Source: Dysidea avara (taxonomy: Eukaryota > Porifera > Demospongiae > Dictyoceratida > Dysideidae). From it: a stretch of DNA of 64,000 nt. The position numbers and the translations under genes are program-made. Positions 36,501 to 42,500 of the stretch are shown here, one piece after another; position 1 is the first letter of the stretch, and every line of letters begins with the position of its first letter. The stretch covers positions 36,475,933-36,539,932 of the forward strand of contig NC_089279.1 in NCBI RefSeq assembly GCF_963678975.1, given 5' to 3'. Under the pieces are notes generated by a model that ran no database searches, had not been told where the DNA came from, and saw only the letters and a list, made by a program, of their open reading frames with translations.

Positions 36501-39500
36501 TGTCATTGGGACTTTGACCACATGTAGTTTTTTTTTCTTTGTACATACACTTTATGCCTCAAGGGGTTTAGTGATTTGAAAGTGCGTTTGCTGGAGATCA
36601 CTTGGGATTTGATCCTTTTTGTATCACATCTCCTGACAGTGTGTCAATAGTTATGTCAACATGACCTTCCTCCCCCCCCTAGCAATGACAACAACTCGGA
36701 CAGTGATGAGGACGATGACAAGAGGAAAATGAAGGACCAGCTGTCAAGTTAGTTTTGTTGTAAAGTTTGTACTCGTTACCCCCTCCCCCCTTCCCTACTC
36801 AGGTGCCATAGTAACAGAGAAACCTAATGTCCACTGGGATGACATTGCTGGCCTGGATGCTGCCAAGGAGGCCTTGAAAGAAGCAGTCATCTTACCAATA
36901 AGATTTCCTCACTTGTTTACTGGTACAGTGTGTGTGTTGTGCCTCTCGTAATAGTTACTGTAGTAACGTGTATTGAATGTGTAGAGATTACAATGATGCC
37001 AGGTTTCAAATTATACATAGGATCAAGAGTAAATAATGGAGAGGAGAGTGTCTAACTGTACTATAGTCTAGTAAATATGAGCCCGTAAAGTCTTATGGCT
37101 TTGCATAAAAAGAGCCGACAAGTGTTAATGAAATGACGTCAATTGTATCTAAGGCGTTAATATACTTTCAATACAAGATAGAACGGCGCCCGTGTACAAC
37201 TGCAGGCCCCAGGAGCGTAATTGTTTAAAATGGCGACAAGTGAAACCAGACGCTCTTCGAGGCTCGCTTCCAGGAAACAGGATTCTTTAGTGCATCGTGA
37301 AGAGGAAACCATTCCTGCTCCAGTGAAAGCGACAAGGAAGAGAAAGAAGTCTTCGGTGATAAAAGAGACAGAAGTGGCAGCTGCTAGTAGCGAAGCCTCA
37401 AGTGAAACAGTTCATAATAGTAAAGGCGCGACAGTAGGGGAATGCGAGAAGGGAACTAAGACATCGGACGAGCCACTTCCTAAGCGAAAGACTAAAGTAA
37501 TGAATGTCAAAGAACGCAAGTTGTTGATAAATTATTTGGATTCAACCAATGACTCGATCCTGGCAGCTGCTGTGAGGGACGATTTAAAGCAGCAGTTACT
37601 GGCAGATAGCTTGAAGAGTTTAGCAGAAGTGCTGTGTACTCGAGAACAGTTATTGGCTACACTGATATCTTGTCATCGTAAGTGCTTTACTGAATTGTAT
37701 GTCGACTGCAAGAAGACGTCAGACCCGATGTTGAATTTTCAAATAAGCTGGTATAACCAATGTAGTGCATTTCTGTTGAGTGAAGAGCATGATATTGCAG
37801 TGCTTAATTTGAAAGAGCTACCCGGATGTTATGTTAGCAATGCCAGGGATGCTTGGTTGCACTTCTGTTCAAATAATAGTGTGCCAGTTCCTAAGAGCAA
37901 CCCAGTAATGATGACAGTATCATCAACCATTTACAGAGTGCTTTTAGAACGGGTAATGAGTTTCCAAGAATCACTAAAAGCTACAAATGCAGTTGCAACA
38001 TCAAGAGAATACACAGACGGCGATGATGTTTATTATCGATTTGGTGGAGCCGCTATATGTGACATGCTCAAGTTGCATTATAAGCAAATCAGGAGCTGTT
38101 CTGATGAGCAAAGGGATTGTATTTCTCAAGAAATTGTTGTACTACAAGCTATCAATACAAAAGATAAATCAAACGTTCCAGAATATTTAAAGTACCGAGA
38201 TCAGGGATTTATGTACTTTCCCCATGTCACTTTTATACCATTTTTGAAGGCTGTTGATGATTGTGTGAAAGGAGTGGTCAATTCAAATGGGTTAGAGGAA
38301 AATGGCTCTGATTTAGTTCAGGTGAGCTACATTCCCAAATACCTAACTTTGTCAAATGTGAATTTTTTCATAGGTCGCTCACAAAATTCTTGCATCACGT
38401 TCAGACATTCAAGAAATGTTTCAAGCTGCTTTGGAACAGCGATTACCAAATTTCAGTACCATTTCTAAATAGCAGTTAACAAAGTGTATGATGTCCTAGT
38501 GCGAAAGTTATGCAACACGCGGATACAGGAGTTCATCTCATCAACAAAGCAGCAGATTGCAGCAAAAAAAGGATTGGCGTCTACTGTTGATGTGAATCTA
38601 CGTACAACTTTACTGATACATCACACAAAACTGGAAACTAAATTAACTACATAAGTACATGAACAGTTTAATTCAACTACAATAGTTAAGATCTGTTACT
38701 GCTTTCAGTTTTGTTATAAACTTTTTTCTTTAGTCCCAATTCTGCAACGGAAATGCTCTGGTCACGGTAGCCTGCACCACTGTGGTGCTCAGAAACAATC
38801 TGCTTCATCAGATGTGCACCTCTAGCAGTGGTGTAATTGACAGCATCCAATTTACCTCCGGCAATGTGTTTATATTGACTAAAGAGGCTCTCCACCGCAG
38901 AACCAGATATCCGTAGTGGTGAGACAAAATATGTTGGGTATGCTGTCAAAAACCATTCGCAGAATGCTTTGAAACCATAGAAATCTATACGCAGCAAATC
39001 CCAGGCTAAAAATGTAAAATGGAAAAAGTAAGCTATACATTCAAGGTGAAGAAATGGGTGTGTAGTGTATAATGTGCATGTGTGAGTGTGTAATGTGCAT
39101 AGCGGTGTGTGTGCATACATGTGTGTAGTGTAGTGGGGTGTATGTATGCATGTAGGGACCAGTACACATACTTTGCCAAGACGAAAAGGATTTCTGAGTA
39201 ACACTAGTATGCTGGAAACTGGGATCTGAAAAAAAAAAACATTGTGATATAAAAATAAATTGTAGTATCGGCTTACCTTGATCTAAAATAGAAGTAAGCC
39301 ACTTTGAAAAATAAGAATATCCGTCTTGTATATTCTTTAGAACTTTGGAATCCATGCTGCGAATGCGATCATGGCTCAAAAATCCTTGCTCAAATAGTTT
39401 GTTGCATGCCTCCAAATAAGACAGAGTTTCAGATGTAGTACTGGCATCATTTGGAGGTGGATTTTGATGTATGTAAGCATACAATTCCATCAAAACATTC

Positions 39501-42500
39501 TCTTGCTAAAGAAGGAAGGTAAGTAAATGTTAATTAACCATAATATGTTTTTATAATTTATTTACCAACATAATATACGATACCTGCATGATTTTGGCTG
39601 GATGAACATTAAGCTTCGTCCATGCATCTCGCAAGCAATGGGCCTCTTTTAAGCGTGGCACCATTCTAGTACATCCTTGGCCTACCCTAGCTATCTCTCG
39701 CTTGTACAGATCAGTGATTGTGTTCCAGCCAAAAGAGACTCTGTCACCACGCCTAAATTCTTTAGTACCACCATCCTTGGATGAAAATAACGCATTTATC
39801 ACGTTCTTTAACTAAAGAATGACACGTATGAATACATCAACCCAACACAATGTATATACCTGGTGGGATGGGCAAATGAGCCAAAATAATCTTTGAGGCG
39901 GGTTGAAAGGATTGATCGTCCAAGGCTCAATCTTGTGTTTATCCTCCAGTTGCTCATTAAGCGAATAAGCACCATGGAAGCCATGACAAGCCTTTATGGC
40001 TGAAATGTTACTAGATGCGCCATCACACACTACCAAACTGGTTTTAAAACCATGGAATTGAAACAACCTGATTGTTTCTAAAACACACGACATCACAAAT
40101 TTAGCATCAACAGTGGAAGATGATGTGAAGTATGGCCCAATTATGTCGTACCCACTCGTCAAGTCACGCCAAAGGAACTGTAAAACATAAGATGTTTGCT
40201 TGGAATCAACTGGATCAGTTAGAAGCTTGTAAACATCATTCAGTGAAGCCTGGTCTTTTGCCGTCATTGCAAGTCCCATCAATGCATTGCTTCTGGAGTT
40301 CCAAAGCATTTGGCAAGCAACCTTGACCTCGTCAAAAATTAAAACTCCATCGGCCTTTGGTTCTTGCTTTCCGTCCTTAACAGACTGCTCTTTGAAGGCG
40401 ACATAGTGAGTCACCTGATCTGCTATACAGTCACTTCTGGCACCAGGATCATGCATAAAAGCACCAGTGTAAGCCTTTAATGTTGACTGGCAGGGAAGCT
40501 GTAGGATATCAAAACTCTTGAGTGCCTCATATGCTGCAGGACTTCTCAAGTATATAGCCAGGGCTGCAAAAGTACTATCATTTAGATGCACAATAGAAGT
40601 ATTCCCTTACCCATTCTAATGGTGATTAAGCTCCATCGGTTTCCTCTGTTACTAGTTGCTGCAAGAAAGAATGTAAGAGGCTATGGATGTAGCTACACCA
40701 ACACTTACCATTAGCTGCTTGATCATTAGCGAATTGTTGAGATTGACGTTTTTTATCAGTAAACCAAATCTCTTTCATCAGATTTCCCACACCATGCTCA
40801 TTTCCTTCCTTCACCAACTTTTCTAAATCATCCTCCTTAGTTCTTTCAACAATAGAACACATCTCGTCGTGTTGTTCCTCATTTAACGTGACCTCATTTT
40901 CTGCATACTTCGCCAATTTCCTAGCTGTTGAATTACGTGCATACTGGGCATTTTGTCTCCTTTTCAGTTGGCTGGCAGGAGACATGTATGACAATCTTGC
41001 TCTGGATGATGCACTTTGTCGTTTAACTTTCCTTGAAGGACTTTCGGATATTTTCCTCCTCTTCTGACACTCTAAGTCTGATATCAAGCGCTTGCAGAAT
41101 CCACAACGGACTTCAGTAGAGGCCTTTTCACTGACTTTAGCATTCGGTGCCAACTCAAACCACAGCAAACATTTAACCGAGTCAACTCTTGCAAAGGGAA
41201 ACTCCGTCTGGCGGACACTCTTAACACGAAAACCAATAACAGCACGGTATTCAGTTTCATATTTCTCAGGATCTATTCCTGGACAAAACTTGTACTGAGA
41301 TCTAACAGAAAATTTCAAGCATAACATGTACAAATCATCAAGGCTTGTCAAACTACCTGATTCCCACCTTCTCATCATAATGTAAGCAGTATAGTAGTTG
41401 TACTCCACAGTTATCAGAACACGAGATAGCATTCCAAATGGCGGATGATTATGCAAATGCCGCTGACTTATTTGCAACAGTGGTTGTTCACTTCCAGTAG
41501 CCATTGAAAAGTTCAGTTCTGGAAAGGTATCCACCAGACTTAAAGACACTGACTGAAGGATATTGGCTTGTTGGACGAATGGTGGATCAGCATTGCTGCT
41601 GGAGGTAGCACCCCTCTCGGAATTGAGATTCTCCACAGCGTTTAACTGTATTTCTTCGTCATAATTGTTGCCACCTTCTTCCCTACCAACGCCTTCATGG
41701 CCATCCGGTTCATCGATATCGATCACACTCGCCGCTCCACGGTCTTCCTTCTCGTCTTCAATGTCAGGTTCATTTGACGATGCTAACTGTTCTGCGGAAA
41801 ATCCTTCTGTAATAGCATCATCTTCTTCATTAAGAAAGGTTCTTTCAACTTCTTCAAATAAAAACCGTTGCCTTGTTTGTTTTCTCGACGGCGTTCCTTG
41901 AGCTTCCATTTTCCATAAGAAAATACCACAATCGAAATACACATGTGATGAGGCCCATGCGGCCGTTTAGTAAGAAGGTCCAGTTGTTAATTGACGTTAT
42001 CGACACTTGGTTAGTAAGCAAAATTATCCTACAGTGCACGTTAATGCCTTACCGCGAAAGCCATAAGACTTTACGGGCTCATATTTACTAGACTATAGTA
42101 CAGTTAGACACTCTCCTCTCCATTATTTACTCTTGATAGGATGTAGTAACATCTTACTAAGCTTATCATATTGTTAAACTCTTTATACTCCACACAAAGG
42201 ATTCACATGTTACCTGGACTACAAACGTCGTTGGTAACAACACCATCCCTAAATCAGATATAGCTCATATCTTATACTTAAGTGTGTATTTGAAAGTACT
42301 TGTACTTTACTTAAACACTTTCCCAATGTACTTATACTTAAGTTCTTTGATAGGCACTTGAGTTATTAAAGAAACTTATGAAATAAGACACTAGAATTCA
42401 TAAAGTTCTAGGTTACACTGTATAGTTCTGTAGTTTTGTTACTGAGTTACTCTCACCAGGAGCATATTGTAGTCACTGCAAAGTAGATATAGTGATGGAC

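What the first reader, a model, noticed from the sequence alone, without database searches (positions are those of the whole stretch)
37024..42135. Possibly active two-gene DNA transposon with P-like transposase and a 7-bp target duplication
The element has intact ends, an exact 7-bp direct repeat (ATAGGAT), and a transposase gene that splices in silico into 927 residues with no stop and D494/D597/E860 candidates. It also has a second convergent gene with no recognised domain. Two genes plus a 7-bp (not 8-bp) duplication and no visible THAP finger suggest a distinct lineage near the P/THAP9 superfamily.
Basis: partly seen in the sequence, partly recalled or inferred. Interest (0 to 1): 0.88.

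Follow-up and report, generated by a model that had tools for sequence, protein, structure and literature searches.

The report
Two-gene P-element relative, probably sponge
This is a young cut-and-paste jumping gene of the fruit-fly P-element kind, probably in a sponge, and unlike the known P elements it carries a second, convergent gene for an unknown helical protein that has travelled with the transposase across many old lineages, so it probably helps the element move or survive.

Summary

The unusual part is the second gene. In this genome 118 of 150 listed transposase places have a convergent second-gene match (about 0.001 expected by chance per place; searches were capped). Adjacent Amphimedon gene models suggest the same pair. 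It is under purifying selection and its divergence tracks the transposase's. Its protein is predicted all-helical with high confidence and has no Pfam, PDB-sequence or convincing fold match. I read it as an accessory subunit replacing or supplementing THAP; that role is inferred, not shown. Verdict: new variant of a known kind.

The parts
37017..37023 (.). left target-site duplication ATAGGAT
   Evidence: sequence
42136..42142 (.). right target-site duplication ATAGGAT
   Evidence: sequence
37024..37102 (+). left terminal inverted repeat (79 bp, perfect with the right one)
   Evidence: first ~70 bp alignable to diverged elements
42057..42135 (-). right terminal inverted repeat
37230..38472 (+). 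second gene as it reads in this copy: exon 37230-38321, intron 38322-38373, exon 38374-38472, 396 aa, truncated by a one-base deficit relative to sister copies
38469..38654 (+). out-of-frame remainder of the second gene (conserved basic C-terminal region, in frame in L002, L003, L004)
   Evidence: homologous to the C-terminus of P0040 and P0044
38686..41909 (-). P-superfamily transposase, exons 41909-40709, 40658-40611, 40563-39860, 39811-39584, 39505-39277, 39225-39172, 39005-38686; 927 aa
39860..40563 (-). main RNase H exon (PF21787) with the first two catalytic aspartates (D494, D597)
38686..39005 (-). last exon with the candidate catalytic glutamate E860

Best explanation
A cut-and-paste DNA transposon of the P superfamily, in an old lineage (seen in this probable sponge genome and, from adjacent gene models, in Amphimedon) that encodes two proteins from convergent genes. 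Transposase: an RNase H-type DDE enzyme cuts at the CAAGAG ends and inserts at a 7-bp target (NTANNAN, as in Galileo), giving 7-bp duplications. Second protein: a nuclear accessory factor with a basic disordered N-terminus, a conserved helical core and a basic C-terminus. It most likely works with the transposase on the element's own DNA (end binding, end pairing or target/chromatin access), doing work that the N-terminal THAP domain does in known P transposases. Shown: superfamily, ends, duplications, target pattern, co-occurrence, convergent order, selection and co-divergence. Inferred: nuclear location, DNA contact, contact with the transposase, replacement of THAP.
Against: No test shows that the second protein binds DNA or the transposase. 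32 of 150 transposase places lack a detected partner, so some elements may do without it, be broken, or have a partner too diverged to see. The GTP-binding insertion and the C-terminal RNase H half gave no Pfam match. A profile of the RNase H exon found no PDB chain by sequence. The model behind the fold match has mean pLDDT 66.9 and is of P0121, not of the window protein. The window copy's second gene is frameshifted although the family moved recently. Within young families dN/dS of the second gene is 0.26-0.52 on few changes, weak evidence of constraint.
Confidence: 0.72

Rival explanations
1. The second protein is an anti-silencing factor: it binds element DNA and removes or blocks host silencing, like VANC proteins of Arabidopsis VANDAL elements, and is not part of the cut-and-paste reaction.
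For: Elements of this kind keep a conserved second gene of no known family with basic tails; VANDAL elements offer a precedent for a transposon-encoded sequence-specific anti-silencing protein (PMC10398659, PMC5735166, starts of abstracts in the listing).
Against: No methylation or expression data here; no sequence or fold link to VANC was tested.
Confidence: 0.25
2. The second protein is a repressor or copy-number regulator of its own transposase.
For: P elements of Drosophila make repressor proteins (recalled); conserved co-inheritance fits.
Against: A separate, ancient gene under purifying selection inside a transposon is easier to explain if it helps the element (inference). Whether it shares sequence with the transposase was not compared directly.
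Confidence: 0.15
3. The second gene is a captured host gene carried as a passenger.
For: Its origin is unknown; no family found.
Against: It sits convergently beside the transposase at 118 of 150 listed places, including 39 of 44 whose RNase H exon is only 55-60% identical to the query P0054, with matching divergence; a passenger would be lost or differ between lineages.
Confidence: 0.05
4. The element is not a P-superfamily member but a separate superfamily.
For: No THAP, two genes, no Pfam match outside the RNase H N-terminal part.
Against: PF21787, the P transposase fold as first hit, Galileo-type duplication length and target pattern.
Confidence: 0.04

Closest known systems
Galileo (P superfamily, Drosophila)
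   Same: P-type transposase; 7-bp duplications; target pattern GTANTAC, of which GTATTAC occurs at two of the four near-identical copies here (PMC4168063 passages; PMC2775673 passages)
   Different: Galileo transposase has a THAP domain, and the passages that I read describe a transposase only; Galileo has long internally repetitive inverted repeats (abstract of PMC3573991 in the listing), here 66-79 bp
Drosophila P element and THAP9
   Same: RNase H fold; two matching catalytic Asp; first fold match in the PDB; an HTH-like region by recalled motif
   Different: P has a THAP domain, 8-bp duplications and 31-bp repeats (PMC7776569 passages); zebrafish P-like elements have 8-bp duplications (PMC10983969 passages); no second protein of this kind is known to me (recalled)
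PIF/Harbinger elements with a Myb-like partner
   Same: works-like analogue: a DNA transposon coding a transposase plus a second protein (recalled; co-domestication paper PMC9710019 seen only in the listing)
   Different: another superfamily and second protein; not tested as homologues
VANDAL elements with VANC
   Same: works-like analogue for a rival: conserved non-transposase protein (abstract starts)
   Different: another superfamily, plants; no relation tested

Membership tests
P superfamily | P-type RNase H catalytic domain | tested here: met
P superfamily | first two catalytic Asp | tested here: met
   D494 and D597; the matching columns D189 and D291 of P0121 are nearly invariant and invariant in 39 sequences
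P superfamily | catalytic Glu in the C-terminal RNase H half | tested here: inconclusive
   E860 is kept in the four diverged relatives printed; no Pfam match for that half and it is outside the model
P superfamily | GTP-binding insertion domain | tested here: inconclusive
   263 residues separate D597 and E860, 228 in the fly enzyme (D303, E531); no Pfam match
P superfamily | terminal inverted repeats with 7- or 8-bp duplications | tested here: met
   7 bp as in Galileo
P superfamily | N-terminal THAP domain (present in P, Galileo and THAP9 proteins) | tested here: not met
   no Pfam match of the N-terminal frame; 2 of 150 transposase places have one of the 150 best THAP matches within 4 kb (150 of 586 candidates scored). 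An unrecognisable THAP relative is not excluded
Galileo | target pattern GTANTAC | tested here: met
   T2 and A6 in 9 of 9 duplications; summed match to NTANTAN 29 of 36, 0 of 200000 random sets reach it. Flanking G1 and C7 are not kept
Galileo | long internally repetitive inverted repeats | tested here: not met
   66-79 bp
Kolobok | TTAA duplication (recalled) | tested here: not met
   7-bp duplications of other sequence

The most novel reading that the evidence does not exclude
An ancient P-superfamily branch in which DNA recognition was moved out of the transposase: the THAP domain is gone and a separate helical protein of a new fold serves as the obligatory second subunit of the transpososome.
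Probability: 0.3. Interest if true: 0.75.

Novelty: new variant of a known kind. Interest (0 to 1): 0.55.

Why it matters
P elements are among the best studied animal transposons and are treated as one-protein systems. A branch with a conserved second gene would show what else such an element can need, gives a natural THAP-less P transposase for mechanism work, and adds a helical protein family of unknown role found at over a hundred places of one genome. The shared 7-bp target pattern with fly Galileo, across animals as far apart as a probable sponge and flies, suggests that target geometry is old in this superfamily.

Tried and rejected
Rejected: 7 bp as a sign of a separate lineage (Galileo). 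Rejected: + gene as chance ORF or passenger. Withdrawn: my own idea that 66 bases of exon 1 are an intron (905-residue model, used); searches show that the stretch is conserved coding sequence. 22 residues are therefore missing from the typed protein; the window frame has them.

Literature: ten searches (64 and 90 had other aims; two returned nothing). Among the titles and abstract starts listed I saw no paper on two-gene P elements or on P elements of sponges; longer result lists were shown only in part, most subscription papers and Repbase are not searched, so an earlier description is possible.

Results against: 32 of 150 transposase places unpaired, among them 4 of 4 of the most diverged (under 55%); dN/dS 0.26-0.52 in young pairs of the second gene, 0.79 for one short transposase comparison and 6.12 for one on very few changes. 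Some unpaired second-gene places do have transposase sequence (L036, L060), so pairing is a lower bound.

Full report
What is there. The element runs from 37024 to 42135 (5112 bp). It has 79 bp of perfect inverted repeat starting CAAGAGTAAATAATGG and an exact ATAGGAT on either side. The cut point alone would be ambiguous, because the bases next to the ends also pair (5- or 3-bp readings), but other copies settle it at CAAGAG with 7 bp. It lies between + strand stretches that read like VPS4 (33728, 36835, 45248, 47189 and 47309; the name is from recalled motifs, and the 72-residue piece gave no Pfam match), so it is apparently an intron insertion.

Host. Among the rows listed for the two proteins the named animal is Amphimedon queenslandica, so a sponge is likely; this is inference.

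Copies. The genome holds four full copies, 0.33-0.55% apart, and diverged ones at 74-75% DNA identity covering both genes. The four close copies carry ATAGGAT, GTATTAC, GTATTAC and AAGTAAG/ATGTAAG. Of 17 loci tested (lengths 6-9 with at most one mismatch), nine gave a 7-bp duplication, counting L002 and L004, where the repeat search had run on into a palindromic duplication. L028_L055 and L045_L025 also gave a 9-bp reading with one mismatch at a shifted end, poorer than their exact 7 bp. Eight gave none: in L013 the right end differs, in the other seven no end pair was recovered; why was not examined. The nine come from families whose second proteins are down to about 46% identical to the window's. 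The first 70 bp of the ends align across them, with CAAGAG and an inner ATGAGCCCGTAAAGT block well kept.

Target pattern. T at position 2 and A at position 6 occur in nine of nine duplications (eight of nine if the other L003 copy is taken), against 9.3% of 7-mers in the window. This is the core of Galileo's GTANTAC (PMC4168063, passages; PMC2775673, passages).

Transposase. The 7-exon model gives 927 residues with D494, D597 and E860. PF21787 is found at E 1.3e-9. A model of P0121, an Amphimedon relative, has mean pLDDT 66.9; its first PDB matches are Drosophila P transposase. The fly enzyme has D230, D303 and E531 around a GTP-binding insertion (PMC7776569, passages). The insertion and the last catalytic residue could not be confirmed by profile here. 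No THAP was found. A CxxC at residue 269 in a strongly basic stretch (pI 10.0 for 90 residues around it, which counts 22 lower) is a possible DNA-binding region in its place.

Second gene. It starts at 37230, has one intron and converges on the transposase. Searches found 53 relatives (8000 candidates scored) and 137 with a profile (120 listed); none of those listed has a precomputed Pfam domain. In the genome, 101 places match P0001 (101 of 322 candidates scored) and 98 matches were found with the diverged relative P0180 (93 of 410 scored), 146 places after merging. The transposase search with P0054, a relative of the window's RNase H exon, gave 153 matches, 150 listed (150 of 511 candidates scored). 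All counts are therefore lower bounds. With P0001 alone 84 of 101 second-gene places had a convergent transposase exon. With both queries 118 of 150 transposase places are paired: 5 of 5 at 85% identity or more to P0054, 53 of 69 at 66-84, 21 of 28 at 61-65, 39 of 44 at 55-60, 0 of 4 below 55. None is divergent and three are on the same strand; the chance expectation is about 0.001 per place. In 26 of 26 loci fetched for the second gene and examined (L035-L060) transposase sequence follows downstream on the other strand. Five further pairs share an unusual contig length (463443, 20057, 6324, 234286, 497080; read by eye, indirect evidence).

Selection. Between L003 and the C11 element the core of the second gene has dN/dS 0.16 (dS 1.06); two transposase pieces have 0.07 and 0.02 at high, nearly saturated dS. 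Protein distances of the two genes correlate at r 0.82 over 12 representatives. So both genes have been kept and inherited together.

Structure of the second protein. A relative with a complete C-terminus (P0040) is predicted at mean pLDDT 79.1, 261 of 454 residues at 90 or more, almost entirely helical after a disordered first 77 residues. No convincing structural or sequence match was found. The full protein in L003 is 457 residues, with basic ends and an acidic core.

State of the copies. The window copy has an open transposase and a second gene that stops after 396 residues. L002 has early stops in both genes. L003 is open in both. L004 has an open second gene and a broken transposase. The six transposase introns keep GT-AG in all four. 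The family moved recently; whether it still does is not shown.

How it probably works. Cut-and-paste with a 7-bp stagger by the P-type enzyme is well supported by anatomy. For the second protein I commit to an accessory DNA- or chromatin-level role with the transposase (about 0.5 on its own), ahead of anti-silencing (0.25), repression (0.15) and passenger (0.05). The absence of THAP, which in the fly first ties the enzyme to the ends, is the main reason to expect end binding or pairing.

Novelty. A new variant of a known kind. The literature searches named in Tried and rejected listed nothing on it, but Repbase and most subscription papers were out of reach.

Noticed in passing
window 25717-26412 and 32703-33410, - strand: Two very similar peptide deformylase genes (PF01327, E 2e-43 and 6e-43) in one window.
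   Followed up: partly
window 58841-60940, + strand: RIG-I-like receptor gene in a 699-aa open frame: helicase plus RIG-I C-terminal domain.
   Followed up: partly
L013, G000:C7:1420513-1421344: About 0.8-kb internally deleted derivative with terminal sequence on both sides (right end altered) and a piece of the second gene, a likely non-autonomous copy.
   Followed up: partly
L048-L053 (C6, C6, C8, C10, C13, C5): Six second-gene places with the same score and identity: another, diverged two-gene family that probably spread recently.
   Followed up: no
protein P0190: A second-gene relative is filed under a 'Proteobacteria bacterium' MAG, probably animal contamination of a symbiont bin.
   Followed up: no
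G000, THAP places: At least 150 THAP-domain places, a number of them in open frames of about 500-560 aa and in groups with equal scores; nearly all lie away from these P transposases.
   Followed up: no
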